Shown here in pieces: positions 8,332-58,656 of a DNA stretch of 64,000 bases; position 1 is the first letter of the stretch, and the number at the start of each line of letters is the position of its first letter. Below the pieces are notes generated by a model that was not told the DNA's origin, did not search any database, and saw only the letters and a list, made by a program, of their open reading frames with translations. The DNA is from Clostridia bacterium (lineage in GTDB: Bacteria > Bacillota > Clostridia > Christensenellales > Aristaeellaceae). Position numbers and translations under genes: made by a program. The stretch lies in assembly GCA_017464305.1 (NCBI GenBank), contig JAFUDS010000015.1, forward strand, positions 22,402 to 86,401, written 5' to 3'.

Positions 8332-8380
8332 ATTTTACCTTCTCTTTCTCGCCCTGACCGGGCGCTCCATATCTCAGGTA

Positions 8381-9391: not shown

Positions 9392-9417
9392 ACTCTATAT
9401 TCTCCCTTCTGCCAGAA

Positions 9418-9912
9418 TTACAGGGCGCGGGTGATCAGCACAATCTCCACCAGCTTGTCCGTGTCGGTACGGCCAGTGGCGATCTTGGCATTGCTGATCA
9501 GCAGGTTGTTGGTGGAAACGGTGCTGAATTTGCCGGTGGCGGGGTTGACATAGACCGCGCCACCCTGGACGATGCCGGTCACATCCTCGAACTCCACGAC
9601 GATAGCGCCGCGCAGGAGAACATCCACCACCTCGCCGGGGGCGTAATACCAACCGTCAGCGGCATCAGCTTTGGGCTGGCCCATCCGACGGACGGCCACA
9701 CCGATGAAGCCGGTGGCGGCGGTGTCGGTAGACTTGAACTTGCGGATACCGCCGTTGGTGGTATCCAGGAGCAGGGGAGCGCCGAACTGGATATTGCCGT
9801 CGGCCTTGTTGGCCACATCGTAGCGGTGAGGATCAATCACGCAATCGCTCATCCGGGACGGGGTGCCGGCATAACCGATAGGCAGCTTATCGCCGATAAC
9901 TTTACCAGGCAT
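9418..9912 (-). CDS. Head decoration / structural cement protein
   Basis: A 164-aa, Gly/Val-rich beta protein just upstream of the major capsid gene, the usual place for capsid cement. The segments GFIGVAVRR and YYAPGEVVDVLLRG match the pattern of small beta-barrel cement proteins. It stabilises the expanded capsid. Confidence 0.75.
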   Translation of the reverse strand: MPGKVIGDKLPIGYAGTPSRMSDCVIDPHRYDVANKADGNIQFGAPLLLDTTNGGIRKFKSTDTAATGFIGVAVRRMGQPKADAADGWYYAPGEVVDVLLRGAIVVEFEDVTGIVQGGAVYVNPATGKFSTVSTNNLLISNAKIATGRTDTDKLVEIVLITRAL

Positions 9913-9931
9913 ATTGTTGACCTCCTATTTC

Positions 9932-10654
9932 TTAGTTTTTCTTGGCATGAGCGTTGTGCTTCGCCATGATGGACTTGCCAATCTGGGCTTCGTCCTGGGT
10001 GGACTTCTTGGCCGCAGCGCCCTTCTGCTTCATGGCCTGCTGAATGGCAGCATAGCCGTCGGAAGTGGCCTTGCGGGTCATGCCCTTGGCCTGGCGGACA
10101 GACTGCAGGGCAGCATCCGCGGCGGCGCGACGTTCCTTCTCAGGCAGCTTGGCCAGATAAGGCCGCAGGGCTTCCAGCATCACCACGGCGCTGTCAGCAC
10201 CGGGGATGGGGTTCTTGGGCTGCTCGGCAGCGCCAATATCGCCCTTATCCTCATCACCAGCTTTCATTTCCTCGGCGGGGACGGTGACAGAGGATTCCTG
10301 ATCCTCGGGGGTAGCCGCAGCGGGAGCAGGGGTGGCAGTACCGGCCAGCTCATCCGCCAACTGCTGCAGAGGATCGGTGTCAGGCGCGGCCTGCTGACCT
10401 TCCAGCTTGGCAAGCACCTGTTTGAGCAGGGCCACAACCTCGGGGGCGTCGTCCTTGGCAGCAGGGGCAGGAGCCGGAGCCGCAGCAGGGGCAGCAGCGG
10501 GCGCGGCCTGCTCAGGCTCGGCGTCCTTCTGCTCCTCGGGGTTATCCAACAGCTCATCAAGAGCGTTGGCAGCTTCTTCGGGGTCTTTGTCAGCCGCCCA
10601 ACCCATGAAGAATCGGGAAAGCAAGGACGGCTTCTTGTCCTTCTCTTTGCTCAT
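9932..10654 (-). CDS. Nested in-frame scaffold protein (alternative start)
   Basis: Codon 187 of the protease gene is an ATG (MSKEKDKKPS) with AAAGGA placed 8 nt upstream, a better ribosome site than many true starts here. Translation from it would give a 240-aa Ala/Pro-rich scaffold alone, like lambda Nu3 nested in gene C. This is inferred from the site and the domain boundary only. Confidence 0.6.
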   Translation of the reverse strand: MSKEKDKKPSLLSRFFMGWAADKDPEEAANALDELLDNPEEQKDAEPEQAAPAAAPAAAPAPAPAAKDDAPEVVALLKQVLAKLEGQQAAPDTDPLQQLADELAGTATPAPAAATPEDQESSVTVPAEEMKAGDEDKGDIGAAEQPKNPIPGADSAVVMLEALRPYLAKLPEKERRAAADAALQSVRQAKGMTRKATSDGYAAIQQAMKQKGAAAKKSTQDEAQIGKSIMAKHNAHAKKN

Positions 10655-18254: not shown

Positions 18255-19316
18255 TCACCCCGGACGGCGTAACCACTGGCGGTAAACCTGCCTCGCAATC
18301 TGCGCCATCATCACAGGCGGAACGCTCATGCCGCATACATACTGCGGCGACTGATCCAGGAAATTGTAATCCTGGGGGAAAGACTGGATGTTGATAAAAT
18401 CCCCATCGGAGAACTTGGCCGCGTCATATCCCCGATAAAAGGTTGATCCGCTGGTCAGCGTCGGCGCCACTCGATTATCATTGACAATCGGGATGGTGAA
18501 TCCGGAATTTTTCCCGTACAGGCGAAGGTTGATGTCGGCCATGCAGGTATCCTCCGGCCTCCGCTTCTGCATCAGCCTGAATGCGTCAGTATCCTCAGAT
18601 ACGGGAACACCCGTTCTCGTTCTCACCTCTCCAAAGGGGATCACCTGCTCATCAAAGGCCAGAGCCAACTTCGGGAATTTCTGATCCTCCCGCCGGGCAA
18701 TGAAAAAGACCCGCTCCCGGGCCTGCGGCACTCCCATTCTCGCGGAATTGAGGAGGAATATCTGCGGCACATATCCGGCAGCTCTGAACGCCTTGACGAT
18801 CTCGTTCACATATCCCTTAGCGTTCCCGGTGATCAGCCCCTTCACGTTCTCCGCGACCACCACCCTGGGTTTCAGCTTGGCAGCTACGTTGATAAAGGCA
18901 AAGAACAGATCATCCAGGCGCTGCATCTTCTGGCCCTCCCTGAACTGCTTTTCGGTGTTCCATCCCTTCTCCCGCTCTCCTGCCGTAGAGAACACGGAGC
19001 AGGGCGGCGATCCGTCCAGCACGTCCAGGTTAAACAGCTCACCGGGTAAATCCTTATCCGGGATAGATATAAATTCTCGTATATCCATGTTATAAGAGTA
19101 CATAGGTTTATGATTTATATTATATATTTTATTCATATCCCTATCTATCTCTACGTTCCCGATCACATGATACCCGGCGCGCTTATATCCCATGGACGAT
19201 CCGCCGCCGCAGGAAAAACAGGTGAACACGTTGCAGCCGTTCCACTCGATTTCCTTCAGCTCGGACAAATTCCATTTCCAGGGGAACACATGCCCCGCCA
19301 CTCTTTTATCACTCAT
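18255..19316 (-). CDS. DNA (cytosine-5) methyltransferase
   Basis: A 353-aa enzyme that transfers a methyl group from S-adenosylmethionine to cytosine. Motif I is FTCFSCGGGSSMGY (31-44), the catalytic Pro-Cys is in LDGSPPCSVFS (PC at 105-106), and ENV lies near 155. The start at 19316 overlaps the ParB-like stop; an ATG two codons earlier is equally possible. No cognate nuclease lies beside it, so it probably protects phage DNA. The phage also encodes MetK, the supplier of the methyl donor. Confidence 0.92.
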   Translation of the reverse strand: MSDKRVAGHVFPWKWNLSELKEIEWNGCNVFTCFSCGGGSSMGYKRAGYHVIGNVEIDRDMNKIYNINHKPMYSYNMDIREFISIPDKDLPGELFNLDVLDGSPPCSVFSTAGEREKGWNTEKQFREGQKMQRLDDLFFAFINVAAKLKPRVVVAENVKGLITGNAKGYVNEIVKAFRAAGYVPQIFLLNSARMGVPQARERVFFIARREDQKFPKLALAFDEQVIPFGEVRTRTGVPVSEDTDAFRLMQKRRPEDTCMADINLRLYGKNSGFTIPIVNDNRVAPTLTSGSTFYRGYDAAKFSDGDFINIQSFPQDYNFLDQSPQYVCGMSVPPVMMAQIARQVYRQWLRRPG

Positions 19317-19809
19317 ACTCATTGAACCTGAACCCGCAATCCGGGCACTCATACTCAAACGCATCATCCCCGAAGGAATCCGCGTCGATCTCTTTGCTGG
19401 TGTCCTTCGGCTCGAACACATCCCCAACGCCCAGATCAAAACCGAACTCGGACATATCGAACAGCCCGCCCACTTCATCCAGGGCTTCATTCATCAGGGG
19501 CAAATCCCACAGGGCCAGCTCAGCGACCTTATTATCAACCAGGCGATAGGCCTTGATCTGATCCTCGGTGAGATCATCGGCCAGCACCGTGGGAACTTCG
19601 TCCAGGTGCAGCTTCAAGGCGGCGCGGTACCGGGTATGACCGGCGACGATCACCCGCGTCTCCTCACTGTCCAGAATGATAGGCACCAGGAAGCCAAACG
19701 CCTGAATGGAGGCGGCCACGGCATCCACCGCATTATCATTCTTGCGGGGGTTGCGCTCATAGGGCTTTATATCAGCCAGGGAACGATAAACGATCTTCAG
19801 CTCGCTCAT
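19309..19809 (-). CDS. ParB-like N-terminal domain protein with zinc ribbon (second of pair)
   Basis: A 166-aa protein. Residues 8-100 follow the ParB/Srx fold (IKPYERNPRKND, then VIVAGHTRYRAALKL, and a YRLVDNKVAELALWD block). The C terminus has a CPDCGF half-ribbon. Its start overlaps the stop of its paralogue by 4 nt. Such proteins are common before terminase genes, often beside methyltransferases; nuclease or DNA-binding roles are suggested. Confidence 0.82.
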   Translation of the reverse strand: MSELKIVYRSLADIKPYERNPRKNDNAVDAVAASIQAFGFLVPIILDSEETRVIVAGHTRYRAALKLHLDEVPTVLADDLTEDQIKAYRLVDNKVAELALWDLPLMNEALDEVGGLFDMSEFGFDLGVGDVFEPKDTSKEIDADSFGDDAFEYECPDCGFRFNEYE

Positions 19810-21547: not shown

Positions 21548-22627
21548 TCACTCCTCCTCGGACTTCCTGGCCGTGTTGAAGGGATAGCGGTAATGGCAGC
21601 CGCCCGCCCGTTTTTCAAACCCGCCATCCAGGAGATGCAGATATTTGACCATCCCATAAGGCGTGAGATCGAAGGTATACCGCACCCACTCCTCAATCGG
21701 GATGCCCTGGTCATTTTCAATACTAACGCTGACCGGCTCCCGCTTTCCGATAGCATAGGCCAGTTGCACCTTGCACCATTTCAGGGTTGGGAATATATCC
21801 AGGGCGGTCTTGGCGATCTCATGGGCCATATAGGAGGCCGTGCGATCCACCTTGGACGGGTCTTTGCCAGAGAAGGCTCCGCCGCCCACCGGCATGAAGC
21901 CGCCGTACTGGTCGCAGACGATTTTCCGCCCTGTCAAGCCACAATCGGCCATCGGGCCGCCCAGGGTCCAGGCTCCGGCAGGATTGATAATATACTCGGC
22001 ATTGGGCGCATAGATTTCGTTGGCATACAGAAGGTTGAGGATGTACCGCTCCAGTTGATCGTGATTGATCCCCGGCAGATGGCAAGCGCTGATCACAATG
22101 GTTTCCACGGCGTCCATATTCTGAGGCTTGTCCAGGTCAACCGTCACCTGGGTTTTGGTGTCCCCTTTGAACGGCGTCTTTCCGGGATTCTCCTCAATAT
22201 CTTTTTCAATCGCCGCTATGATCTTATTCGCCAGGTCAAAGGCGAAGGGGAGACGGCTTTCCGTGCCGCGCTCCGCATAGCCGAACATGATCCCCTGATC
22301 CCCGGCAGCCGTGAGGGCGTTCCAGCCTTCTCCCACACCTCCGGCGATCTCCGGCGACTGATAGGAGATCACCTTTTTTACGGCCAGATTGCCATAGCCC
22401 AGGCCGCAGGATACCCGGTTGACGATCTCTGCAATATCCACGGCCTCCTCCGCCGCCGAAGTGACCTCCCCACACACAAACGCCTGACCATTCTTGACCA
22501 TGCACTCAACGGCCACATGGCTGTTGGGATCAAGGGCCAGGTATGCGTCCAGGATCGCGTCGCTGATCTGATCCGCCATTTTATCGGGATGGTATTTGCT
22601 TACTTGCTCCGTACTGAACAATCTCAT
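21548..22627 (-). CDS. metK: S-adenosylmethionine synthetase
   Basis: A 359-aa enzyme making SAM from methionine and ATP. Present are HPDKMADQISDAILD (13-27), GDQGIMFGYA (109-118) and the GGGAFSGKDPSKVDR phosphate-binding block. The start at 22627 has GGAGG 8 nt upstream. It is slightly shorter than bacterial MetK (about 380-400 aa) but all motifs are intact. In this phage it could support the two methyltransferases. Confidence 0.95.
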   Translation of the reverse strand: MRLFSTEQVSKYHPDKMADQISDAILDAYLALDPNSHVAVECMVKNGQAFVCGEVTSAAEEAVDIAEIVNRVSCGLGYGNLAVKKVISYQSPEIAGGVGEGWNALTAAGDQGIMFGYAERGTESRLPFAFDLANKIIAAIEKDIEENPGKTPFKGDTKTQVTVDLDKPQNMDAVETIVISACHLPGINHDQLERYILNLLYANEIYAPNAEYIINPAGAWTLGGPMADCGLTGRKIVCDQYGGFMPVGGGAFSGKDPSKVDRTASYMAHEIAKTALDIFPTLKWCKVQLAYAIGKREPVSVSIENDQGIPIEEWVRYTFDLTPYGMVKYLHLLDGGFEKRAGGCHYRYPFNTARKSEEE

Positions 22628-22657
22628 TCTTTTATCCTCCATCGTATACATATTATT

Positions 22658-41163: not shown

Positions 41164-42825
41164 TCAGGAGCCGGTCAGAGCCAGCATTTGAGAGGCATCC
41201 TGCAGGAAATAATCTGGGCGGCTCACCACCTGCTCATAGGCCTCTTTGCCCATGAAGCTGTCCACGACGGCCTTTTCTTCCCTGTCCAGCTCCTTGTATC
41301 CCTTCCGCCCGAAGGACGGCGGCAGCCAATTCTTGTGACGGCCAGCGAAGATATTGAACTTCGCCAGGAGATCGGGATTCCTGAACTCAATATGACACGT
41401 GCCCTTTTTGTAGAAGGTGATAAAGAAGTGCTTTGTCGGCACCTTCCGCGTGTCGCCTGTTTTTTCAACATAAGCCAGGGCATCACTCAGGCTCACATCC
41501 GGCGCTTGTCCGCCGTCCAGGTAGTTGAACACCTTTTCAATATCGCCCAGCTTGCCGCGCACGTTGTAGGCTCTGAACTCATCCGGGGCGCATGACCAGC
41601 GAGTGTATCCATTCAGCGGGAGGATCACCTTTTTGTTGACTGCAAAAGCATTGTTGGTTTTCCAGCCGTTGTAATAATGGATGTTCTTTGACATTTCATC
41701 CCAATGGTATTTAATCGTCCACTCATCGAACAGATCAAGGATTGTCTGCTCAATTCCTCCGATCACCCGGTTATTCATTTCGATCATCAACTGATAGATA
41801 TTATAGGCGCTAAACTCATAATTGGACAGCTCATGCACCTTGCTTTGAAGATCATTTTGCAGATTGGTTGTCAACTGCTCCATGAAATGCGGATTTTTGA
41901 ACAGGGCAGCCCAATACTTTTCCCTGGTCAAACGGATGTACTCATTGATAGAATGGTTGTCCTTTTTACCGCCAACAGCCAAGGAGATCAGGGGATTGCC
42001 GCACTTGTTCTCTCCGATTTTCTCCACGATCAACGGAGCCAGCGCTCGGTATTCCTGGATCAGCCTGATACCGCACTCCACCTCATAATTGAACCTGTCC
42101 ACGATGGCATCAATATAATCGGCCTTGGCAAGCGCACGATCCGCACCTACATCGGATTTATCGGTGTACTTATGGGCCGGGCGGAGGTGATCCATGATCA
42201 TGCTGTCCCCATCCTCGGCGGCTTCGACCTTCGCATTGACCAGGGCGATCTCCACATCGGTGCTGCGCTCAGCCTTGCCAAAGGCGCCTGAGATATATTC
42301 GATAGACGCCTCCATCTGCTCCAATCGATTCAACAGGACCCGGCGCTGCGCGGTATAGGGATTTTTCAGGGTTTCCGCATTAAGCAGACATACCACCTGG
42401 CCGCCATCCTTGATCATATCCAGGGCTTTGAGAAGGTGTGCCGCTCCGTCCGAAAACGGAGGATTCATCAGGATCAGGTCATAATGCTTATGCGTTTGAT
42501 AAGTGAGAAAATCATCATGCACCACCCGAAAACCCTTGTCCCGGAGGATCGCTTGGAGGTTGGGATCAATCTCCACGCAATCCACATCTTCACCCGGCAC
42601 ATAATTTTCAGGCTCAGCAAAATTCTTATGGTAGCTGTGCCGTGCGTTCAGCTCCCAACAAGCATACCGCGCCAAATCGCCCTTGCCCGCGCTCGGCTCC
42701 AGAACGCTCTCCACCTCATACCATTTGACCAGGCTGATCATCTTCTCTGCCAGCTTCGCCGGTGTAGGGTAAAAGGTTTCCTGGGCCTTCTTGGTTTCGG
42801 GGATCGCATAGATCGCGCTGCTCAT
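41164..42825 (-). CDS. DNA adenine methyltransferase with DUF4942 domain
   Basis: A 553-aa protein. The N-terminal methyltransferase has the SAM-binding EPSAGKGDLARY (43-54), acidic VEIDPN, and the catalytic NPPF (121-124). The C-terminal part from about 230 is the DUF4942 domain. The start at 42825 follows GGGAGGTG. Such enzymes are thought to protect phage DNA by N6-adenine methylation. It ends the accessory operon. Confidence 0.87.
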   Translation of the reverse strand: MSSAIYAIPETKKAQETFYPTPAKLAEKMISLVKWYEVESVLEPSAGKGDLARYACWELNARHSYHKNFAEPENYVPGEDVDCVEIDPNLQAILRDKGFRVVHDDFLTYQTHKHYDLILMNPPFSDGAAHLLKALDMIKDGGQVVCLLNAETLKNPYTAQRRVLLNRLEQMEASIEYISGAFGKAERSTDVEIALVNAKVEAAEDGDSMIMDHLRPAHKYTDKSDVGADRALAKADYIDAIVDRFNYEVECGIRLIQEYRALAPLIVEKIGENKCGNPLISLAVGGKKDNHSINEYIRLTREKYWAALFKNPHFMEQLTTNLQNDLQSKVHELSNYEFSAYNIYQLMIEMNNRVIGGIEQTILDLFDEWTIKYHWDEMSKNIHYYNGWKTNNAFAVNKKVILPLNGYTRWSCAPDEFRAYNVRGKLGDIEKVFNYLDGGQAPDVSLSDALAYVEKTGDTRKVPTKHFFITFYKKGTCHIEFRNPDLLAKFNIFAGRHKNWLPPSFGRKGYKELDREEKAVVDSFMGKEAYEQVVSRPDYFLQDASQMLALTGS

Positions 42826-43394
42826 CAATTCACACCTCCCACATCATTTTTCTGCTCCTCATCCGGCAGCAGCCCCATCGGATGCTTGTGGTCATAATAG
42901 GAATGTTCCAGCCAGAAAGAATAGATGGGCTTATAGACTTTGCCATCCAGGATCACCGGACGGCTAAAGGGATAATCATTCTCGCCGCCGTACAGAACAT
43001 AGAGGAAAAACATACCATCCACGGTGGTGGCATCCTCATAATTCAGCTTTCTATCGAAGCCCTCCGCCTTGTAGTGAACCTCCCGGCTTTCCTTATCCAC
43101 GCGCTGCAGCATGAACGGATCAATGCCAGCCAGCTTTTCGGCTTTCCGCATCTTCTCCACGGCTTTTTCCAGGGCCTCATCCAGCTTTTCAACGTCCTCC
43201 TCGGTGGCAAACTCCAGGAAGCCGCCGCCAAACATGGCATCCGTGCAGAATGGGTTTTGAGCTTTCAAGGTAATATGCAGGAAGTAATCCCCAGGGAAGC
43301 TCTTGCACTCTGTGATCCGCACATCCAGCAGCCCATAATCCTTGTAGGGCATAAAGCCCTTGTTGGCCCTCTCTTTGATCTCCGCCAGCGTCAT
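42825..43394 (-). CDS. Accessory protein of unknown function
   Basis: A 189-aa protein starting at 43394 behind GAGGAGGTGG. Segments include TLAEIKERANKGFMPYKDYG and a charged helix at about 85-115. It overlaps the methyltransferase start by one base. Not recognised. Confidence 0.65.
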   Translation of the reverse strand: MTLAEIKERANKGFMPYKDYGLLDVRITECKSFPGDYFLHITLKAQNPFCTDAMFGGGFLEFATEEDVEKLDEALEKAVEKMRKAEKLAGIDPFMLQRVDKESREVHYKAEGFDRKLNYEDATTVDGMFFLYVLYGGENDYPFSRPVILDGKVYKPIYSFWLEHSYYDHKHPMGLLPDEEQKNDVGGVN

Positions 43395-49881: not shown

Positions 49882-50358
49882 TTATTCTTCCGTTTCGCCG
49901 GCCTGCTCCGGCTCCTCGGCCTGATCCGCCGTCGCGGTTTCAGTTACACGCTGCACGGCGATCAGAGGAACGGGCTGCGGCCCTTCTTTATGCTCCCTTC
50001 CAATAATACTTTCTACGATGGAATCGGCGGCCTTGAATTGGTCGCCGGTCAATTGTTTTCCATCGACGGCGGCATACTGCATGACCAAGCTCAGAGCCGT
50101 CCCCTTGCGCTCATTATCATCTTCTTTTACGGTGCCATTCTTGACCATCTGATCCACGGCATCTACGGCCAGACGGCACCAATACACCAGGGAAGATAAA
50201 AAGGTATCTTCATATTTGGGGAGTGCGTCAATGGCCTTGGAAATGAAGCTGATGGTATCCTTGGACAGAAAGCCCCGTTTATAAAGCAGGAGCAGGATCA
50301 CGATGGCGACGCCCGCCACAATCAGGGCGGCAACGGTGAGCAGGGTTTCACTATTCAT
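49882..50358 (-). CDS. LLH-type phage holin
   Basis: A 158-aa protein. One N-terminal membrane segment (VAALIVAGVAIVILLLLYKR), then an amphipathic soluble part and an acidic tail. The layout fits the LLH holin family that controls release of the endolysin. The start at 50358 follows GGAGGTAAG. Confidence 0.75.
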   Translation of the reverse strand: MNSETLLTVAALIVAGVAIVILLLLYKRGFLSKDTISFISKAIDALPKYEDTFLSSLVYWCRLAVDAVDQMVKNGTVKEDDNERKGTALSLVMQYAAVDGKQLTGDQFKAADSIVESIIGREHKEGPQPVPLIAVQRVTETATADQAEEPEQAGETEE

Positions 50359-50373
50359 ACTTCTTACCTCCAT

Positions 50374-50691
50374 TTATCCGTTTGATTCTTCATCGGAAAC
50401 GGTATCCTCATCCTGGGCGGAGGAGGATGGGCGGGACTTGAAATAGCCCACGATCCCCTTCTCCGCCACAGAATTTCCAGCATAGAATCCAATATTGACC
50501 ATCATTACATCATCCGCCCCCTGGATGATGCCCTGCACGGCCGAAGCCAGCGACGGACGCAGGATCAGCACAGCCAGGGCCGCAATGCGGAACAGGCACC
50601 AGAAAGCGGCAATTCCAGTAGCCAGCCGTTTGGAATATTGGATATAGGGGGCTTTTGTCTTTTTGGTGGGGCTTCTCGCTTTTGCATCCAT
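50374..50691 (-). CDS. Small membrane protein of the lysis module
   Basis: A 105-aa protein with a basic N terminus and a membrane segment (FWCLFRIAALAVLIL), and an acidic end. It lies between two other membrane proteins near the endolysin. It may be a holin or antiholin. Confidence 0.65.
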   Translation of the reverse strand: MDAKARSPTKKTKAPYIQYSKRLATGIAAFWCLFRIAALAVLILRPSLASAVQGIIQGADDVMMVNIGFYAGNSVAEKGIVGYFKSRPSSSAQDEDTVSDEESNG

Positions 50692-50717
50692 CTTATCACC
50701 TCATTTTTGCCGTACGA

Positions 50718-51176
50718 TCATAGAAAATCGTTTTGCTCCATGCAGTCACGGTACAGAACACGGATATAATCAAAAGCCTCCTCGAAGCGGCCATTTTGCT
50801 GACCTGTTTTCTTGAGGAGCTTTTGGTATTTATCGTTGAGGGCGAATATGTGATCAAATTCCTCCTTGGTATGGCGGCGTTTCAACCGGCAGGAATTGGC
50901 GAAGTCAAGAACGGTGGTGCGGATGGTATCCATTTCGTTCTCATCCATCTCCCTCGCCTGCCGTTCCTGCTCCTCTTTCACGCCCTCCACATCCTTTTTG
51001 ATCCCGGCCAGCTCATCCCGCACATCCTGGGTGAGCAGCTTCCCGAGCCAGCCAAAAAAGGACTTCCAGGGATTCCACTTGATGTGCGGGTTAAAGTCAA
51101 TGAACAGGGATAAACCGACGGCGATATATCCCCAATGCTCACCTATCCAATTCCAAAACTGCTCCAATGGAATCAC
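50718..51176 (-). CDS. Membrane-anchored coiled-coil protein of the lysis module
   Basis: A 152-aa protein with a hydrophobic N terminus (FWNWIGEHWGYIAVGLSLFI), then a charged coiled coil (about 50-95). It overlaps the endolysin stop by 4 nt. A holin-like or spanin-like role is possible; no family recognised. Confidence 0.62.
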   Translation of the reverse strand: MIPLEQFWNWIGEHWGYIAVGLSLFIDFNPHIKWNPWKSFFGWLGKLLTQDVRDELAGIKKDVEGVKEEQERQAREMDENEMDTIRTTVLDFANSCRLKRRHTKEEFDHIFALNDKYQKLLKKTGQQNGRFEEAFDYIRVLYRDCMEQNDFL

Positions 51177-52108
51177 CCCACAGCCGGGGTGCTGTCACCC
51201 GATCCGCTGTCCCCGAACAGCATCTTATCCAGCAGATCATAGACTGCCAGGAGATCAGCCTTTTTGACGGTGATATACTCGCCATCGCCGCCAGCGTCCC
51301 CGTGCTCATCCGGGATTTCCTGCAGGAATTTGCTCATCATGTACCCGGTATGGATAAAGTCGGGCGCCTCATAGGTGCATCGCGTCCATTCGCCAGAGCT
51401 GCCCTCCATATAGACCGTGGCCCCGATAGGCACCTGATAAATCACCTTGGAGCCGCCGTTGGCCTTTTCCCTCAGATTGACGGTTTTCCCGCTCTGAGCG
51501 ACCACCTTTGCCGTGTAGCTCATTTTTTCTCCACCTCCACTCTCTTTTTCTTCCACCAGCGAATAATCAGGCCGCCCGAATCCGGCGATCCTGCCGTAGC
51601 CGATGGTGTAATTCTTCCGGGCAACCCCGCCGCCGTTGGCGACCTTGTTGGACGCCCCGGTGGTGTTGCCCTCGATGGTATAAATCCGGGTGCTGGTGAC
51701 CTTCTCCACAATGCCGGTGTGTCCGGCCTGGTTTGGATACTCGGACGACCAGAAAAAGACCTGATCCCCTACGCACGGGGAACTGAACAGCCTGCCGGCC
51801 TTGCGGTAGTATCCCATGCTGGAATTGCACCCGGCGCCGGAGCTTTTCTTGGGTTGGCACAGCAGCTCCCGCGCCTTATCCGCACCGAAGGCCTGCATAA
51901 AGCACCAATCCACAAACACGTCACACCAGGCGATCCCCTGCTTCCTGCCATTGTAAAACCACGGAATGCCGTCCATATCACGGGCGTATTTCGTGATGTT
52001 CTCATCCCCGGCATTGGCGGTCTTATCGTCCAGCTCATTCTTGGTTTCCTTTTCCAGATAACCCACCTCGGCACCGGCCACGGCCAGCACCTTATCAACC
52101 GCGCTCAA
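51173..52108 (-). CDS. Endolysin with CHAP amidase and SH3 domains
   Basis: A 311-aa cell-wall hydrolase. The CHAP domain has Cys62 (WCDVFVDW) and His130 (NQAGHTGIVEKV). From about 197 a bacterial SH3 domain (VNLREKANGGSKVIYQVPIG) binds the wall. A C-terminal helix follows. It lies with the three membrane proteins in a lysis cassette behind the DGR. Confidence 0.92.
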   Translation of the reverse strand: MSAVDKVLAVAGAEVGYLEKETKNELDDKTANAGDENITKYARDMDGIPWFYNGRKQGIAWCDVFVDWCFMQAFGADKARELLCQPKKSSGAGCNSSMGYYRKAGRLFSSPCVGDQVFFWSSEYPNQAGHTGIVEKVTSTRIYTIEGNTTGASNKVANGGGVARKNYTIGYGRIAGFGRPDYSLVEEKESGGGEKMSYTAKVVAQSGKTVNLREKANGGSKVIYQVPIGATVYMEGSSGEWTRCTYEAPDFIHTGYMMSKFLQEIPDEHGDAGGDGEYITVKKADLLAVYDLLDKMLFGDSGSGDSTPAVG

Positions 52109-52142
52109 CCTATCACCCCTCTCTATAAAAGGCGAAGCCAGC

Positions 52143-52334
52143 TCATACCGGCTCCGCCTTATCGCACCACGTATAGAAGTGCTCCCTTATATCCAGCTCC
52201 AAACCTTCCACGATCTCCACATCATGCACCATCAGGGCATCCCCGCCAGGGGGAAACAGGTACACATCCGCCTTTCCGCCGGCAGTTTCGCAAATCTCGT
52301 AGAAGTCGCTGATCACGATCCTCTGTTTGTTCAC
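52143..52334 (-). CDS. Small acidic protein behind the reverse transcriptase
   Basis: A 63-aa protein from a GTG at 52334 that touches the reverse transcriptase stop. Contains EIVEGLELDIREHFYTWCDK. A ribosome site lies further up than usual. Not recognised; may be part of the retroelement or of the lysis module. Confidence 0.5.
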   Translation of the reverse strand: MNKQRIVISDFYEICETAGGKADVYLFPPGGDALMVHDVEIVEGLELDIREHFYTWCDKAEPV

Positions 52335-53491
52335 TACGCGACCATCCCCTCCTCATCATAGGCAGACACCCAAATGCTATCATCCACGACCTCCACATCA
52401 TCGGCGCTCTTTCTGCATAGGACATAGTGATCCTCTATCCATTTGCACAGATTGGCGCCGTTGCAATGCTTGGTCATGCCATAATAACTATTGACGGTCT
52501 GCAATGCATTGTCCAGGTCAATAAGCCCATCGGCATATAACCCGGCCACATAGAGGAGGCTCTGCTTGATATGCTGCGTGGTTTTCTTTCTCAGCCTCAA
52601 CCCGTGCGGCGTCACCCGATAGCCGACAAACTCGCACCCCTGCACTGCCGGTACGATCTTGCTCTTTGGGCTTATATCCAGGCGCAGATCATCCTTCAAG
52701 AAGGTGGCGATCCTGTCAAACAGACGCTCGGCCTCCTCCCTTCCTTTGACCAGGAGAATAAAATCATCCATATAGCGAACATAGTAATGGACATGCAGAA
52801 CGTGCTTGCAATATTGATCCAGGCGATCCAGATAAATATTGGCGGTTTCCTGAGAGGAGAGGTTTCCTATCGGCATCCCCACATCATACAAGCGTTCCTT
52901 GCGGGGACAATCCGCAATGCTCGATCCGGGCGGAAGGCCAAAGGGAATATCCGGGTTATCAATGATCACGCACATCAACCACATAAACCACAGATCATCG
53001 GTGATCTCATCGTACATTTCCAGGGTTTTTTCATGGTCTACGCGGTAGAAATACTTGCTGATGTCACCTTTGATGATCACCCATTCGCCGGCATCTGGCC
53101 GGCGGCTTACCTTCTGCACCCAATTCAAAAGACACTCGGCTGCTGCCAGGGTGCCCTTCTCTTTTCTGCATCCATAACTGTGTTGGATGAACCTCTTATC
53201 CATGTAGGGATTGATTTGCCGATAGATGGCCCATTGCACGATCCTGTCCCGGAACCCCAGCGCCATAACCAGGCGTGATTTGGGGAAATTCACATAGAAC
53301 TCACGGTATGGGCCTACCTTGTAATACCAGCCCATCAATTCCCTTTGCAACTGGATTAAGTTTTCTTCCAAATTCTGCGTGAAGGCAATGACCTCATCCC
53401 GGTATCTCTTTCCCTTCGCCGCCTCCTGATATGCAGCGTACAAGTTTTCAAAGGAGCAAATCTTGTCCATAAGGTTATGCAGTTTTTCCAT
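52334..53491 (-). CDS. DGR reverse transcriptase
   Basis: A 385-aa reverse transcriptase that copies the template-repeat RNA with errors at adenines. From the ATG at 53491, residues include KGDISKYF (142-149, first catalytic Asp), the DGR-specific IGNLSSQ (208-214) in place of the usual QGxxxSP, and YMDD (240-243). The start MEKLHNLMDKICSFENLYAAY matches DGR enzymes; an upstream ATG at 53545 lacks a ribosome site. The gene lies downstream of avd and the template repeat in the standard order. Confidence 0.96.
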   Translation of the reverse strand: MEKLHNLMDKICSFENLYAAYQEAAKGKRYRDEVIAFTQNLEENLIQLQRELMGWYYKVGPYREFYVNFPKSRLVMALGFRDRIVQWAIYRQINPYMDKRFIQHSYGCRKEKGTLAAAECLLNWVQKVSRRPDAGEWVIIKGDISKYFYRVDHEKTLEMYDEITDDLWFMWLMCVIIDNPDIPFGLPPGSSIADCPRKERLYDVGMPIGNLSSQETANIYLDRLDQYCKHVLHVHYYVRYMDDFILLVKGREEAERLFDRIATFLKDDLRLDISPKSKIVPAVQGCEFVGYRVTPHGLRLRKKTTQHIKQSLLYVAGLYADGLIDLDNALQTVNSYYGMTKHCNGANLCKWIEDHYVLCRKSADDVEVVDDSIWVSAYDEEGMVA

Positions 53492-53961
53492 ATTCCCTAT
53501 GCTCCATCTTGACGAATAATCAGGGTATCGAATAAGAAATGCCATGCGTGGCGTTTCCGCTGTCCTTTTGGCTGGTGTATTCCGTTCGCATCCTGCTGCC
53601 AGCCTCCGGGGCGCTGCCTTCCGGCATCTTCATGGCGATTCCAGCCGGCGCATTGCGTGGAGCACCAACTGGATTCTCATTTACCGGCTCAATAGGGGCC
53701 GGTGGGAAATATGCCCCTCCCGAATTACAAAAAAGCCTGCTGATCCGTAATCTGGCAGGACGGAATGGTGATACCATATCCGGGAGCGGGGCCGCCCGCC
53801 ATAGTTCGTGTTCGCGTTGGAACGGTTGTTGTTGAAATTCAAATAGGCCGGGCCTGTGTTGCTGGTGTTGTTATAGTTGCCACCGCGCCGGGCGACGCGC
53901 CACCGGCACCGCCGCCACAAAGCAAACTGCCAATTCACGGCATATTCCCCAAATCATGGGA
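53492..53961 (-). ncRNA. Template-repeat RNA region of the DGR
   Basis: 470 bp between avd and the reverse transcriptase without a credible gene. The template repeat lies at 53782-53900; about 290 nt follow it before the reverse transcriptase start. In studied DGRs the transcript of the repeat plus downstream spacer is bound by the enzyme and Avd and primes cDNA synthesis. The exact RNA ends cannot be read from the sequence. Confidence 0.8.
53782..53900 (-). repeat. DGR template repeat (TR)
   Basis: A 119-nt repeat that aligns without gaps to 54469-54587. All 15 mismatches fall on adenines of the TR (minus strand). It is rich in AAC codons in the frame of the target gene, so most changes alter Asn codons. 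The end at 53782-53800 is a GC-rich block identical in both copies. Confidence 0.97.
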
Positions 53962-54375
53962 TTATTCATCCCTCGATTCCTTTTTGCCGGAGGTTTTGGC
54001 TTCCGCTTTCTTGATCCATCCGCCGATCAGGTTTCCGATCTCCTCAATCATGCCGCACCACACCCCATAGCTGTGTACCTCGATCAGATACCGCACGTTT
54101 CCCCGTTTGTCCGTGTAGCTCGTTCTGCTGGCCTCCCTCATAAAGCCTTTCAGCATTTCCTTTTCCACGTCCAAATCCCGGAGCGTACTCTTATTGTAAT
54201 AATGCAGCCTGGCCTTGGTCGCCAGCCTATACATGGTATGGAGCTGGTTCATCACATCCGCGCCCAAGGTTTCTCTTTCCGCCCTGGGCCATCTGCGCAC
54301 GATGGGCCGCACCCATCGGATCAAGTCCTCGATCTTCTGGCAGGTCGGGCCTGGATTGTTATAATCGGTTTCCAT
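53962..54375 (-). CDS. avd: DGR accessory variability determinant (Avd-like)
   Basis: A 137-aa, basic helical protein. The N-terminal IEDLIRWVRPIVRRWPRAER with LGADVMNQLH follows the Avd pattern (Trp, Pro-Arg, Leu-Gly) of the four-helix bundle that binds reverse transcriptase and template RNA as a pentamer. The ATG at 54375 has GGAGG upstream; the longer frame to 54414 runs into the hairpin behind the variable repeat. The C-terminal part is Lys/Glu-rich. Confidence 0.9.
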   Translation of the reverse strand: METDYNNPGPTCQKIEDLIRWVRPIVRRWPRAERETLGADVMNQLHTMYRLATKARLHYYNKSTLRDLDVEKEMLKGFMREASRTSYTDKRGNVRYLIEVHSYGVWCGMIEEIGNLIGGWIKKAEAKTSGKKESRDE

Positions 54376-54400
54376 ATAAACCTCCGTGTTGTCGGTCAGA

Positions 54401-54441
54401 AAATCCGGGGGCACGCGCTACCGCGCGGCCCCTCAGGATTT
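54401..54441 (-). other. Hairpin/cruciform behind the variable repeat
   Basis: An imperfect inverted repeat 5 nt after the target gene stop: an outer 6-bp arm (AAATCC / GGATTT), a GGGG/CCCC block, and an inner CGCGC/GCGCG stem with a 4-nt loop. In the Bordetella phage DGR a hairpin downstream of the variable repeat is needed for efficient retrohoming; this element has the same place and form. Confidence 0.72.
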
Positions 54442-54445
54442 CAGT

Positions 54446-55678
54446 TTACCAGGTATCAGGCACCCAGAGGGAGCGGGGCCGCCCGCCACAGAACGTGCTC
54501 GCGTAGGAACGGTAGTAGGAGAAAATCAAATAGGCCGGGCCTGCGTCGCTGGCGCTGTGATAGTTGCCACCGCGCCGGGCGACGCGCTCATCCCTTGTAA
54601 ATTGCACATACAAACGGCCGGGAACTGTCATGCCGGGAATAGGGGCAAGGCCCAGCTCTTTGAGAATATACGGCACATAGGGGAGGGTGGCGCTGTCCAC
54701 AGCAACATCCTTGAATACAGTATTGCGCTGTACTCCATCAAACTCCTCATCCGTCAGCTCACGGGCAACCAATGTTATCTTGCCATCGATCCACGCATAA
54801 TGCACTGTGCCAGGGGTGCCGGGCTCCACCAGGGTATACCCATCATCGGAGCTGTTCGGAAGAATGGCTTTCCACAGGGTACTATTGGCGGACAGGTCAG
54901 CACCGGGGGCGGCGGCATCATTATCGGGGATAATCTGAATCTCACAGTTGACCAGACGCACACCGTACACCTGTTCGTTGGCATTGCCGACCACATCATT
55001 CAGGCTGCCCACATCATTCCCCAGGCACCAGCTGCGCGGACCGCTGCCGGTGATGGTATTGAGGCCGCTGTAATTGGATTCGCTGATCTGCGATTCCACG
55101 GGAACGCCGCCCACCTGCTTACCCTTCGCCCAGTATTCCGGGGAATTGTAGGGCTGATTGGTCAGATCGGAGGTATGGGGTTTCAGGGCGGTATACTCCC
55201 ATCCAAACTGAACTCGTTTCAAACCGACGGTGATGCTTTTGCCGGTTTCCCAACGGGTACCGTCGCGGTAATCATGACCGTAGTTGTTGTTGCCGTGCGG
55301 ATTCCATCCGTACTTATGGCACATCAACAGGATCAGGCCATGATCCGCGATGGTCATGCCGGACACGCCATAACGGAAAGCCTGCATCCTGGTCAGAAAC
55401 GGGTCCATGCCGAGGCTCACCATCGGAGCGCGTCCGGGCAGGGAATACAGGGTGCCGTTGGTTTCCAGCTCAGAGGCCATATACTGGCCCAGGAGAATGC
55501 GGTCATACAGAGTGCCGCCGGTGGTAAAGGCCGGATGCGCATGACCCGGCAGAGAGGCATCCAGGAAAGAGGACTGCATCTGATAGAACGGCACGAATAC
55601 AGAGGGGTTTCCCTTTGCATCGTACAGAACTTTATTGCCATGCCGACGGGCGGCCAGCTCCAACGCGGTATTAATCAT
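54446..55678 (-). CDS. DGR target: variable tail-tip receptor-binding protein (C-type-lectin-like)
   Basis: A 410-aa protein. Residues 1-330 form the body; the C-terminal domain ends in a formylglycine-enzyme/C-type-lectin-like core with RVARRGGNY and GGRPRS framing the variable part. Residues 366-403 are encoded by the variable repeat. Thirteen residues differ from the template: His374, Ser375, Ala376, Asp378, Ala379, Ile385, Ser387, Tyr388, Tyr389, Tyr392, Ser394, Phe396, Cys397. It follows the tail fibre genes, so it is probably the host-binding tip. Confidence 0.92.
   Translation of the reverse strand: MINTALELAARRHGNKVLYDAKGNPSVFVPFYQMQSSFLDASLPGHAHPAFTTGGTLYDRILLGQYMASELETNGTLYSLPGRAPMVSLGMDPFLTRMQAFRYGVSGMTIADHGLILLMCHKYGWNPHGNNNYGHDYRDGTRWETGKSITVGLKRVQFGWEYTALKPHTSDLTNQPYNSPEYWAKGKQVGGVPVESQISESNYSGLNTITGSGPRSWCLGNDVGSLNDVVGNANEQVYGVRLVNCEIQIIPDNDAAAPGADLSANSTLWKAILPNSSDDGYTLVEPGTPGTVHYAWIDGKITLVARELTDEEFDGVQRNTVFKDVAVDSATLPYVPYILKELGLAPIPGMTVPGRLYVQFTRDERVARRGGNYHSASDAGPAYLIFSYYRSYASTFCGGRPRSLWVPDTW
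54469..54587 (-). repeat. DGR variable repeat (VR)
   Basis: The 119-nt copy of the template repeat at the 3' end of the target gene. Relative to the template, 15 adenines are changed (7 to T, 6 to G, 2 to C); no other base differs. The stretch 54469-54487, GC-rich and unchanged, is the likely initiation-of-mutagenic-homing side. Confidence 0.97.
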
Positions 55679-55844
55679 CGTTCATACCTCCCAGCAGGGC
55701 GGCCAGCTCCTGATATTGGGCCACGGTGATGCGATTCCCGGCCAGGTACACATCCAGCTTTTCCATGTAGTCGTCACGCTTCTCCTCGATGGTGCCGTCC
55801 TTAACGGCGGCTTCAACCAGACGCTTCATCAGCTTATATGCCAT
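55671..55844 (-). CDS. Small 57-aa protein of the tail-tip module
   Basis: Starts at 55844 behind GGAGGTGAG; overlaps the DGR target start by 8 nt, so the two are probably coupled. It is helical (KRLVEAAVKDGTIEEKRDDY). Function unknown; it resembles the small genes that follow fibre genes in Firmicutes phages. Confidence 0.65.
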   Translation of the reverse strand: MAYKLMKRLVEAAVKDGTIEEKRDDYMEKLDVYLAGNRITVAQYQELAALLGGMNDD

Positions 55845-55846
55845 TT

Positions 55847-56044
55847 TTACTCACCTCCAATTTCCAGCATGGTCAATTCTTCCAGCGCATCCGCCAGAAG
55901 ATCATCGCGGTCACGGTTGGCCTCCGCAATGGCCTTGAACGGAGCAATCTTCGCCGCTTCCCTCTCGGCGCGTTCCCGCTCCCATTCGGCAATTTCTTCA
56001 TCGGTAGGCTCATGCTCTTGGATCATCAATTCCTGCTCATCCAT
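55847..56044 (-). CDS. Small acidic helical protein of the tail-tip module
   Basis: A 65-aa protein, very rich in Glu and Ala, predicted as one or two long helices. AGGGAAAGCT precedes the ATG. It may be a chaperone-like partner of the fibre. Confidence 0.6.
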   Translation of the reverse strand: MDEQELMIQEHEPTDEEIAEWERERAEREAAKIAPFKAIAEANRDRDDLLADALEELTMLEIGGE

Positions 56045-56058
56045 AGCTTTCCCTCCTA

Positions 56059-56649
56059 TCAGCTCCCGGACAGAGCCGCAAGCTGCGCCTCCGCCGTGGC
56101 GATCCTGTCCTCATGGTCACGAAGCGTCTGATCAAACTCCGTCAGGAGCATATTGATCATGTCGGTCACGGCCTCCAAGTCCACCGTGCGCTGCTCCATC
56201 GTCACCAGGGCAGAGGGAGACACATTGACCGTCACGCTGGACACGGCGGAGACCACCGTGATCACATCATACTCACGGACATAATCCGCAGACGATGCCG
56301 GGGCGATCCAGTCCGGGGTATCCCCGAAGGTGGCATAGCAATACAGCACGTTGGCGGAGGAGGTCGGGTCCTGCACATACAGGCCGATTTCGTTCACGAA
56401 AAAGCCCGTGGCAAGGCCGCTATTACGGTATTGTACTTTGATTTTCGCCTGCCCTCCTTCCAGCTCCGCACCGATGAAAGAGGCGTCGCAAATCTTTTTC
56501 GACAGGGAGGTGCGCGCCCTGCAAGCAGATTCTCCCGTCACAACGCCGCTGCCAAGCTCTGCTTTGGTGAACTTCAAAGCTCCCTGGGCGGCCAGCACCT
56601 TATTCAGCACGGTCAAGCCCGCGGTGGTCAGATAGGCTTCCAATGCCAT
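56059..56649 (-). CDS. Tail fibre protein
   Basis: A 196-aa protein starting MALEAYLTTAGLTVLNKVLA. The segments FTKAELGSG, CDASFIGAELEGGQ and GFFVNEIGLYVQDP are typical of short phage tail fibre N-terminal domains that attach to the baseplate. The C-terminal helix (residues 150-190) could trimerise. It probably presents or joins the variable tip. Confidence 0.8.
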   Translation of the reverse strand: MALEAYLTTAGLTVLNKVLAAQGALKFTKAELGSGVVTGESACRARTSLSKKICDASFIGAELEGGQAKIKVQYRNSGLATGFFVNEIGLYVQDPTSSANVLYCYATFGDTPDWIAPASSADYVREYDVITVVSAVSSVTVNVSPSALVTMEQRTVDLEAVTDMINMLLTEFDQTLRDHEDRIATAEAQLAALSGS

Positions 56650-56671
56650 AAGTTTGGTCACATCCTTTCTT

Positions 56672-57442
56672 TTACTGTGTATTGACAGCGATCCGGGCAT
56701 AGTTGCACGGCAGGGAAGCGCCGTACAGAACGGTGTCCGTATCTTGCTGCTCACGTTGGAAATTGATCGGAATGCCGATCTTGGCGTAGCTCTCCGGCAT
56801 GGAGCATCCGGCCCGGATTTCCGTCTCCGCCTCGGAAAGCTGCTGCGTTGGATAGCGGATGGTGATCCGGGCCTGATCCGCCGCCAGGTCAGTGCCGGCA
56901 GAGGTCGGGAATCTGGCGTTTGCATCCGCCACAGTTTCCTGCCGGATCGTGACCTTCATTTTGACGCCCAGGGGCTTCGGGATGATGTATCCGGCCAGGA
57001 TCAGCTCCACCATGACAGGCTCGGTATAGCCGGTTATATCCACGTCCATAGACATATCCTGATTGTCGTGGTAAACAGCATCCATTTCGTCGGCCATCGT
57101 CGCATCCCATATCTGCTGAAAATGCTCCTCTGTTCCGTCCCACTGATTTTGAATGATCTTTGCCAGGAGCACCTTGCGGAACACATCATCGGACAGCGTA
57201 GCCGGAAGGCCGGGGATGCTTACCGGCGGGAAACGGCGATCCGCACCGATATTCAGCGCCACAATATCCAACTGTTTCCCGACGGCCTCATGCACATAAA
57301 AATCCCTGGGCATATCCTTCGCCACCATGTGAGCGGCGTCGATATACTCAAGGACCTTGGCAAGATGGCTCATGTACTTCTCGGCTGTTTTGTGCTGCGA
57401 TTCAATCCCGTCAAGGTATTCCTGAATATCCTGCTCGGCCAT
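56672..57442 (-). CDS. Baseplate protein (DUF2612/DUF2313 type)
   Basis: A 256-aa protein after baseplate J, where myophages encode the Mu gp48/P2 I-like protein. The pattern VGKQLDIVALNIGADRRFPP, then SDDVFRKVLLAKIIQN fits DUF2612. The start at 57442 follows GGGAGGTGC. It joins fibres to the baseplate wedge. Confidence 0.78.
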   Translation of the reverse strand: MAEQDIQEYLDGIESQHKTAEKYMSHLAKVLEYIDAAHMVAKDMPRDFYVHEAVGKQLDIVALNIGADRRFPPVSIPGLPATLSDDVFRKVLLAKIIQNQWDGTEEHFQQIWDATMADEMDAVYHDNQDMSMDVDITGYTEPVMVELILAGYIIPKPLGVKMKVTIRQETVADANARFPTSAGTDLAADQARITIRYPTQQLSEAETEIRAGCSMPESYAKIGIPINFQREQQDTDTVLYGASLPCNYARIAVNTQ

Positions 57443-57456
57443 GCTCAGCACCTCCC

Positions 57457-58656
57457 TTAATTGGCGATAACCACGGAGATCAACGGCTCGCGGCCCCTGG
57501 CAACCTCATCGAAGTCAATCACCACATCAGATGTGCTGAGATCGTCCCCGTTCCTGGCTGCCAGCACCTCGGTGATGGAGAAGGTGGGCGTCCGGGCATC
57601 CACATTGATAGACTGCGCGACCATCCAAATGATCGAAGTGGTCAGGTCGGTGCCGATGCTGAATGTATCCAGATATTCGATGATCGCAGCCTTGATCTCA
57701 TCCGGCGTACTGGTTTTGTATCCTGCGCGGCGGGTGATGGTGATCTGCATTGCCACATCCACATAGGACAGGCGGGAGAACAGGATGGTGTTGTCCTGGC
57801 CGGAGGCATCGGTGACATGCACCTCTTTTCTTCCGGCGCTGCCGACAGGGCCGCCATATGTGCCGACGCCATCGCCTTTGCGCAGGAAGATCACTTCGCC
57901 GATCTCGGCCTCCTCGCCACCCTCGACCACACAGCAGATGGAATGGCCGGGGATACCGTTGGCATCCACCGCGTTTGTATCATTCTCATAGACCTCCCGG
58001 CGGCTCACCCCGGAAATGGCGCTCAGGCCAGCCCGGAGGCCGTCCTTCATGCTCTGCGAGGGCAGGGCAACAGAATCAGCCTGCCGCGCCCGCAGCTCAC
58101 TATCCGTTTCGGTGACGGTGCCGGTGGCCGCGCTGCCCTCATTTGTGACACTCTCCCAACCGGCGACAGGCGTCATAATATGGGTAACGGTGCCGGGGGC
58201 GGCCTGGATCAATCCGGCATCCCGGCAATACGCCTCCACCTGGACGGTGCCGGTATCCCCGATGATCGTCACCTCCGGCAAATCCCAAATATTGCCGTTG
58301 GTATCCGACACAAAGCCATTGTTGATCGTAGTATTCGGCTCCCCGCTCAGGGTCAGAACGACCATGCTCTTTGTGGCCTGCTTCCGGGCGATACCATTGA
58401 TCGCCACGATATAATCAAGCCCCGTACCAATGGCGGTGACGGGGCTTCTGGCATCATAGACCAGCTCGCAGGTCTGATAGGTATCGTAGATTTTCTCGGC
58501 GATCTTGCTCAGAAATTCGTAATCCTGGGAATCGCTCCCCAGGTACGCGCCGGAGCCGTAGATGGTCTGAAAATCATCGATGAAGGATTCCAAAATCTCG
58601 TTGTAGGTCGGGTAATGGTATCCCGATTCATCGATATACGGCTTGAAGTAGCTCAT
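57457..58656 (-). CDS. Baseplate J-like protein
   Basis: A 399-aa wedge protein. Recognisable are SDSQDYEFLSKIAEKIYDTY, the middle segment TETDSELRARQADSVALPSQ, and GVSRREVYENDTNAVD, all typical of the baseplate J family. It forms the wedge ring that triggers sheath contraction. Confidence 0.92.
   Translation of the reverse strand: MSYFKPYIDESGYHYPTYNEILESFIDDFQTIYGSGAYLGSDSQDYEFLSKIAEKIYDTYQTCELVYDARSPVTAIGTGLDYIVAINGIARKQATKSMVVLTLSGEPNTTINNGFVSDTNGNIWDLPEVTIIGDTGTVQVEAYCRDAGLIQAAPGTVTHIMTPVAGWESVTNEGSAATGTVTETDSELRARQADSVALPSQSMKDGLRAGLSAISGVSRREVYENDTNAVDANGIPGHSICCVVEGGEEAEIGEVIFLRKGDGVGTYGGPVGSAGRKEVHVTDASGQDNTILFSRLSYVDVAMQITITRRAGYKTSTPDEIKAAIIEYLDTFSIGTDLTTSIIWMVAQSINVDARTPTFSITEVLAARNGDDLSTSDVVIDFDEVARGREPLISVVIAN

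What the first reader, a model, noticed from the sequence alone, without database searches (positions are those of the whole stretch)
52334..55678. Complete diversity-generating retroelement aimed at a tail-tip protein
Sequence shows, in order on the minus strand: target gene with variable repeat, hairpin, Avd-like gene, template repeat, reverse transcriptase with IGNLSSQ and YMDD. DGR biology (Bordetella phage BPP-1) predicts that this phage rewrites 13 or more residues of its receptor-binding tip to follow changing hosts. It lies between tail fibre and lysis genes of a temperate myophage.
Basis: partly seen in the sequence, partly recalled or inferred. Interest (0 to 1): 0.95.

Follow-up and report, generated by a model that had tools for sequence, protein, structure and literature searches.

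The report
Phage cassette that rewrites tail protein
A bacterial virus carries a complete retroelement of a well-known kind that copies a template, with errors at adenines, into the end of a tail protein gene; beside it lies a small unnamed protein family that deserves a test.

Summary
The finding holds. Window 52334-55678 (minus strand) is a complete diversity-generating retroelement (DGR) in BPP-1 order: target with variable repeat (VR), hairpin, Avd, template repeat (TR), reverse transcriptase (RT). TR and VR are 119 bp and differ at 15 sites, all template adenines (15 of 30 A; P 4e-11). The RT groups with DGR RTs against group II (100/100). Avd matches Pfam bAvd. The target is related to TaqVP, a solved DGR variable protein. 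In two sets of near-identical contigs of related phages, 86 of 86 VR differences fall on template adenines. The phage has sheath and integrase genes. Activity in this phage was not tested. New member of a known kind.

New lead: a 63-residue protein overlapping the RT stop belongs to a family without credible Pfam or PHROGs match (13 members scanned). It lies downstream of an RT at 13 of 14 other places, is fused to the RT in a sister clade, and resembles a domain joined to phage tail-assembly chaperones. The target carries a chitin-binding-like insert.

The parts
54446..55678 (-). DGR target protein, 410 aa, TaqVP-related; VR at its C-terminus
   Evidence: ORF; PDB 5vf4 E 3.9e-32, profile E 2.1e-52; phrog_2889 E 1.3e-60, unknown function; no Pfam or NCBIfam match at E 0.01
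55124..55255 (-). chitin-binding-like (CBM5/12-type, name recalled) insert in the target, residues 142-185
   Evidence: profile A5 vs 1ed7 chitinase A1, E 4.2e-5, and 7 further deacetylase or NodB-domain chains whose stretches do not pass on their own; window sequence alone only E 0.057; lies where the 5vf4 alignment has its gap
54469..54587 (-). variable repeat (VR), 119 bp
54469..54488 (-). G+C-rich identical 3' end of VR (IMH-like; partner in TR 53782-53801)
   Evidence: sequence comparison
54401..54441 (-). hairpin/cruciform downstream of VR, loop GGTA (fits GRNA)
   Evidence: DNA fold -17.7 kcal/mol, z -4.52; GRNA-loop stem after VR in 17 of 28 loci, near-copies included, vs 10 of 1400 random stretches
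53962..54375 (-). Avd, 137 aa from ATG 54375 (ORF open to GTG 54414)
   Evidence: Pfam bAvd 61.7 bits, cut-off 40; phrog_3206 'Avd protein of DGR'; NCBIfam DivGenRetAVD 70.2 bits, under its cut-off 80
53782..53900 (-). template repeat (TR), 119 bp, 30 A
52334..53491 (-). DGR reverse transcriptase, 385 aa
   Evidence: phrog_1423 E 2e-118; Pfam RVT_1 75.5 bits; tree; PDB 8ub7 E 3.7e-43
52143..52334 (-). 63-aa protein ('S63'), GTG start sharing a base with the RT stop codon (TAGTG)
   Evidence: family found by profile search; RT fusions; low dN/dS where computable
51173..52108 (-). CHAP endolysin, start of lysis genes (context)
   Evidence: Pfam CHAP 37.1 bits; phrog_9589 endolysin

Best explanation
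This is a phage-borne diversity-generating retroelement. The TR is transcribed; RT with Avd copies it into cDNA and misincorporates at template adenines; the cDNA replaces the VR at the 3' end of the target gene, guided by the identical G+C-rich end and the hairpin; the TR is kept, so the cycle can repeat. The result is a tail-tip protein with up to 18 variable residues on a C-type-lectin-type scaffold, most likely to follow changes of the host surface. Shown here: all parts, their order, adenine-only divergence of VR from TR, and adenine-only divergence among near-identical contigs of related phages. Inferred from the BPP-1 model: the reaction steps, the role of Avd and hairpin, and receptor binding.
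For: 15 of 15 TR/VR mismatches at template A. DGR-side RT. Avd family match. Target related to TaqVP, a DGR variable protein of solved structure. GRNA-loop hairpin. Same gene order in BPP-1 and, without an annotated TR, FP_Lagaffe. Of 32 IMG/VR RT loci, 23 have a TR/VR pair with at most 3 non-A mismatches, best pairs summing to 291 of 302 mismatches at A; 1 (L033) has only a poor pair, 8 none (its scoring favours A mismatches, so this count leans that way). 86 of 86 VR differences at A in six contig pairs. TR codons: 11 of 18 are AAC/AAT and no A change reaches a stop.
Against: No direct evidence of activity in this phage. A 30-base TR pattern has 0 exact matches in IMG/VR and the cassette has no DNA match among the phage records, so its own population could not be compared. 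Avd is under its NCBIfam cut-off. The target model is weak (mean pLDDT 63), so the C-type-lectin fold rests on sequence. The TR-spacer RNA shows no unusual fold (z -1.44, 8 of 100 shuffles as good). Other contig sets are less clean: L018/L024 8 of 10, L023/L025 13 of 16, L023/L030 13 of 15, L025/L030 11 of 14 differences at A of both TRs; L005/L006 none; L013/L046 17 of 38 with different TRs.
Confidence: 0.95

Rival explanations
1. A decayed DGR: the parts are present but no longer active, and the VR is a frozen relic of past mutagenesis.
For: No variation seen between the two contig copies; no population data.
Against: RT, Avd and target ORFs are all open; the YMDD and IGNLSSQ motifs are intact; TR codons stay stop-proof; contigs of related phages vary at A.
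Confidence: 0.04
2. A duplicated gene end next to a non-DGR reverse transcriptase (group II or retron type), with divergence by ordinary mutation.
For: RT also matches TIGR04416 group II at 110.7 bits, far under its cut-off 300.
Against: 15 of 15 mismatches at A of one copy (P 4e-11); tree; Avd and hairpin.
Confidence: 0.01
3. For the small protein S63: it is a tail-assembly chaperone-like partner of the diversified tail protein, which stays beside the cassette by position, not a factor of the DGR reaction.
For: Profile resembles the N-terminal domain of ORFs in L160/L163/L165 (hhalign probability 84.6, E 6.8e-6); in L163 and L165 that domain is joined to Phage_tail_APC (E 2.1e-27 and 6e-21). 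One of 14 other places (L166, contig L169) has no RT. An in-frame ATG lies at or near the junction in the 6 RT fusions looked at, so S63 might be made apart.
Against: In-frame RT-S63 fusions in one clade with low dN/dS; co-occurrence with DGR-type RTs; L047 keeps a 53% identical target and a CHAP gene but shows no RT, Avd or S63 in its 10.3 kb.
Confidence: 0.5

Closest known systems
Bordetella phage BPP-1 DGR (mtd-VR, avd, TR, brt)
   Same: Same order of parts on one strand (that bbp7 is Avd is recalled), adenine-specific TR/VR difference, hairpin after VR, small gene between VR and TR
   Different: RT 33% identical; target is TaqVP-like, and no Mtd chain was listed; TR-to-RT spacer about 290 bp here, 144 bp there; phage here has a tail sheath; the gene after brt, bbp4, is no S63 match
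Faecalibacterium phage FP_Lagaffe DGR
   Same: Closest named phage by RT (47%); order target, Avd-like, RT, then lysis genes
   Different: Target only 28.5% identical; the best-ranked phage target is that of Pseudomonas phage Bise, 30.8%. No S63 found after its RT; a different RT subclade; the prophage Lagaffe_CP has two variable regions (PMC11792537 passages), here one VR in the assembly held (69% complete), doubled only by contig redundancy
TaqVP (PDB 5VF4), Thermus aquaticus DGR variable protein
   Same: Homologous along both halves, VR at the C-terminus (PMC6328139 passages)
   Different: Target here has a chitin-binding-like insert at 142-185 that falls in the gap of the alignment
Phage and prophage contigs L005-L015, L046, L049-L058, several from ruminant guts by record title
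   Same: RT 53-68% identical; most with the same cassette and many with S63
   Different: S63 fused to RT in L008, L010-L012, L050-L055; S63 absent in L013 and L057; two tandem targets in L008 and L010

Membership tests
Diversity-generating retroelement | TR and VR near-identical, differences at TR adenines | tested here: met
   15 of 15 at A
Diversity-generating retroelement | RT of the DGR clade with the SQ motif (IGNLSSQ) | tested here: met
   SQ motif named in PMC3521204 (passages)
Diversity-generating retroelement | VR inside a target gene, in frame | tested here: met
   VR at gene nt 1092-1210 of 1233
Diversity-generating retroelement | Accessory protein Avd (most DGRs) | tested here: met
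   Pfam over cut-off and PHROGs; NCBIfam under cut-off
Diversity-generating retroelement | Hairpin downstream of VR with GRNA loop (phage DGRs) | tested here: met
   consensus from PMC3240598 (passages); a scan for perfect stems of 6 or more did not list the window
Diversity-generating retroelement | Identical G+C-rich 3' end of TR and VR (IMH-like) | tested here: met
   about 20 nt identical; function not tested
Diversity-generating retroelement | RT-dependent VR change over generations | not testable with these tools
   no reads; only relatives compared
C-type-lectin-type DGR target | homology to a solved DGR variable protein | tested here: met
   5vf4 E 3.9e-32
C-type-lectin-type DGR target | predicted fold | tested here: inconclusive
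   mean pLDDT 63.1, VR region mostly under 60; fold search of this model not run, machine busy
Temperate myophage | tail sheath, integrase, repressor | tested here: met
Known DGR accessory proteins for S63 (Avd, HRDC, MSL) | Pfam match | tested here: not met
   13 members scanned; three unrelated families, one member each, best E 0.017

The most novel reading that the evidence does not exclude
The 63-residue protein right after the RT (52143-52334) belongs to an undescribed small-protein family that travels with DGRs of several RT lineages in genomes of one bacterial family and is fused to the RT in one clade: either a new DGR accessory factor or the dedicated assembly partner of the diversified tail protein.
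Probability: 0.45. Interest if true: 0.55.

Novelty: new member of a known kind. Interest (0 to 1): 0.35.

Why it matters
The cassette is one more clean case of a widely known mechanism, without a DNA-level match in the phage collection searched. What could matter is beside it: if the small S63 protein is part of the DGR, the list of accessory proteins (Avd, HRDC, MSL and one unattributed protein, per PMC10053308 passages) grows, and the natural RT fusion gives a direct handle to test it. A constant chitin-binding-like module inside a hypervariable tail protein would suggest that the phage combines fixed glycan binding with a variable site.

Tried and rejected
Repeats by chance or ordinary duplication: rejected by the adenine pattern. 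Group II or retron RT: rejected by tree and scores. A first tree of 47 rows had a wrong frame for L134 (end branch 7.7); in it four divergent S63-linked RTs (L157, L159, L162, L165) joined the other group II rows (85/93, flagged as long branches meeting) and L160 sat on a long branch of its own. It was rebuilt without L134, L160, L157, L162 and three near-copies, so DGR versus group II support comes from 40 of 47 rows. A second VR elsewhere in the assembly: none but the contig's own redundancy. Same-phage population data: none found. Rfam: no match in the window. Fold of TR plus spacer RNA: not unusual. S63 as a Pfam or PHROGs family: no credible match for 13 members. S63 fold: the model is of the homologue in L005, pLDDT 83.8, with no PDB match at E 0.001 or better (best 0.40). 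S63 in solved structures by sequence: none. S63 in the 70 more distant loci L059-L128: none, so it is not a general DGR part. Rosetta-stone caution: L090 joins its RT to an endolysin-like reading frame, so fusions at this place may be neutral or assembly errors.

Literature on small proteins beside DGR RTs: the listings and passages of PMC10053308, PMC8867640, PMC6642488, PMC8144416, PMC3521204 showed none like S63; of PMC10743442 I saw abstract and outline. A 2018 survey that, as recalled, named further accessory proteins is not held, so S63 may be its unattributed protein.
Full report
Observation. The minus strand of 52334-55678 holds, in order, a 410-aa target ORF (54446-55678), a hairpin, an Avd ORF, a repeat and an RT ORF. 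A repeat search without base preference found one direct repeat of 30 bp or more in 50000-58000: 119 bp, 53782-53900 against 54469-54587, 687 bp apart. All 15 mismatches lie at A of the 53782-53900 copy, which has 30 A among 119 bases; hypergeometric P 3.7e-11. Outside these borders the similarity stops at once. In the target frame the template has 18 codons with A, 11 of them AAC or AAT; 13 residues differ between template and variable reading; no A change can make a stop; about 1.4e17 proteins are reachable (the script's 19th codon and its factor 4 come from an A outside the repeat and are taken off here).

Proteins. RT: phrog_1423 E 2.1e-118, Pfam RVT_1 75.5 bits, PDB 8ub7 E 3.7e-43 against 1.9e-16 for the next sequence. 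Avd: Pfam bAvd 61.7 bits over a cut-off of 40, phrog_3206, NCBIfam DivGenRetAVD 70.2 bits, under its cut-off of 80, no solved structure matched at E 1. Target: PDB 5vf4, E 3.9e-32, which PMC6328139 (passages seen) describes as TaqVP, a DGR variable protein of C-type-lectin fold with its variable region at the C-terminus.

RT tree. 36 DGR-type rows and 4 group II rows separate at 100/100. The window row sits with RTs of uncultured phage contigs and MAGs (highest identity L009, 68%), inside starred sets of 14, 15 and 17 rows. BPP-1 lies further out on a long branch. A first, less clean tree is told under tried and rejected; the window's 36-row group there has 99/99.

Hairpin. 54401-54441 folds as DNA at -17.7 kcal/mol, z -4.52. 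Its loop is GGTA. PMC3240598 (passages seen) reports G+C-rich stems with GRNA loops 4-34 bp after VR in phage DGRs, needed for efficient homing in BPP-1. Here the gap from VR to the stem base is 27 bp. Across 28 loci with a TR/VR pair (the window and some near-copies among them; L013 and L048 are one contig), 17 have a GRNA loop on a stem of 5 or more pairs within 80 bp of VR, against 10 of 1400 random stretches of the same loci. A stricter scan for perfect stems of 6 or more found 14 of 28, the window not among them.

Relatives. A viral-contig scan gave 32 RT relatives. With a scan whose scoring favours mismatches at one template base, 23 of 32 have a TR/VR pair with at most 3 non-A mismatches, 1 a poor pair, 8 none; the best pairs total 291 A and 11 other mismatches. 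The controls with C, G or T as template mostly returned the same repeats read backwards at lower scores. Two sets of near-identical contigs, L008/L010/L011 and L020/L021/L022 (98.4-99.8% over the main block), have identical TRs and VRs that differ at 12-16 sites per pair, 86 of 86 at template A. Less close sets are less clean and are listed under evidence against.

The phage. The window lies in a contig of 86,401 bases whose first 23,094 bases repeat its last 23,094 with 6 mismatches, so the contig is one unit of 63,307 bp, circular, permuted or in tandem, plus redundancy, with no other DNA. The two cassette copies are identical, which tells nothing on activity. Sheath, head, portal, tape measure, baseplate, integrase and repressor-like genes are present. 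A DNA search of the cassette in 50,697 phage records gave no match; by RT the closest named phage is Faecalibacterium phage FP_Lagaffe (47%), with the same gene order; by target the best-ranked is Pseudomonas phage Bise (30.8%), Lagaffe having 28.5%. PMC11792537 (passages) reports that DGRs of two induced Faecalibacterium prophages were active.

Insert in the target. A profile of 11 targets matches chitin-binding modules at residues 142-185: 1ed7 E 4.2e-5, and 7 further deacetylase or NodB-domain chains up to 0.0035 whose stretches do not pass on their own. The window's own sequence alone reaches only E 0.057. The stretch is present in all 11 rows and falls in the gap of the 5vf4 alignment. 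Carbohydrate binding is inference.

Small protein S63 (52143-52334). Its GTG start shares a base with the RT stop codon. Relatives follow the RT in many loci of the closest clade, but L013 and L057 lack it. In L008, L010, L011, L012, L050, L051, L052, L053, L054 and L055 it is fused in frame to the RT end; 8 of these in the tree form one group, 100/100. Pairwise dN/dS is 0.05-0.42 in the 6 of 8 pairs where it could be computed (two saturated, and synonymous change is high in most), 0.10 and 0.12 within the fused set. A profile found it in 14 of 150 genomes of the host's family, own included, and, with a wider profile, in 5 of 396 of the order, all in that family and own included. Of the 14 places outside the own genome, 13 have an RT upstream on the same strand within the 1.5 kb fetched, in some with one or two small ORFs between: 11 by tblastn, 2 by Pfam (L160; L157, weak at 21.6 bits against a cut-off of 29.6), both also matching phrog_1423; the RT at L158 is a fragment at a contig end. 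L166 has none, nor has its contig. Four of the 14 (L153-L156) have the contig lengths of L050, L049, L056 and L054 and so are not independent of the model. Over the same 150 genomes, S63 with phrog_1423: 13, S63 alone 1, RT alone 31, neither 105; Fisher P 3.1e-7, not corrected for kinship or for the model having been built from DGR neighbours. Of ten wider stretches, six have TR/VR pairs with no non-A mismatch (16, 22, 11, 14, 11 and 7 A mismatches), L176 only a 38-bp pair with 3, and three none, so divergent DGR lineages carry it too. None of the 70 more distant loci L059-L128 does. L047 has a 53% identical target and a CHAP gene but neither RT nor Avd nor S63 in its 10.3 kb, which fits a tie to the DGR more than to the target. 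Against that, the S63 profile resembles a domain joined to Phage_tail_APC in L163 and L165; that domain also directly follows RTs on G211:C59, C12 and C20 of the host assembly. Two readings remain: a factor of the DGR reaction, or an assembly partner of the variable tail protein. The predicted fold of the L005 homologue (three strands, two helices, one strand; pLDDT 83.8) has no close PDB match.

Verdict. The finding is right and ordinary in kind: a new member of a known kind. The lasting value lies in the S63 family and the target insert, both leads that need experiments.

Noticed in passing
L226 (host assembly contig C20) 7744-9994: A second, different DGR in the same assembly: TR 8214-8352, VR 7744-7882, 20 of 20 mismatches at A, RT frame 8600-9994. 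A third RT lies on the 6.4 kb contig C12, without TR/VR found.
   Followed up: partly
window 21548-22651 (-): The phage encodes an S-adenosylmethionine synthetase (PDB 5t8s E 1.4e-71) and two DNA methyltransferases, 18255-19490 and 41164-42828.
   Followed up: partly
L008 2536-4407 and L010 3155-5026: Two tandem target copies whose VRs are identical within a contig, while the contigs differ from each other at 14 template-A sites: shared writing, gene conversion or an assembly effect.
   Followed up: no
L090 6093-6737: RT reading frame runs on without a stop into an endolysin-like sequence (likeness judged by eye).
   Followed up: no
window 50707-50721 and 51042-51045: The only 6 differences between the two ends of the redundant contig cluster here, in or beside ORF 50718-51176, not in VR.
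   Followed up: no
L132 4959-6053: Klebsiella phages carry a distant relative of the target (about 30%, 20 records); in the one looked at no RT is annotated within 5 kb, where most genes are hypothetical.
   Followed up: no
L047 4141-7100: A phage contig with a close target relative next to a CHAP gene but no RT, Avd or S63 detected: a DGR-less or DGR-lost version of the locus.
   Followed up: no
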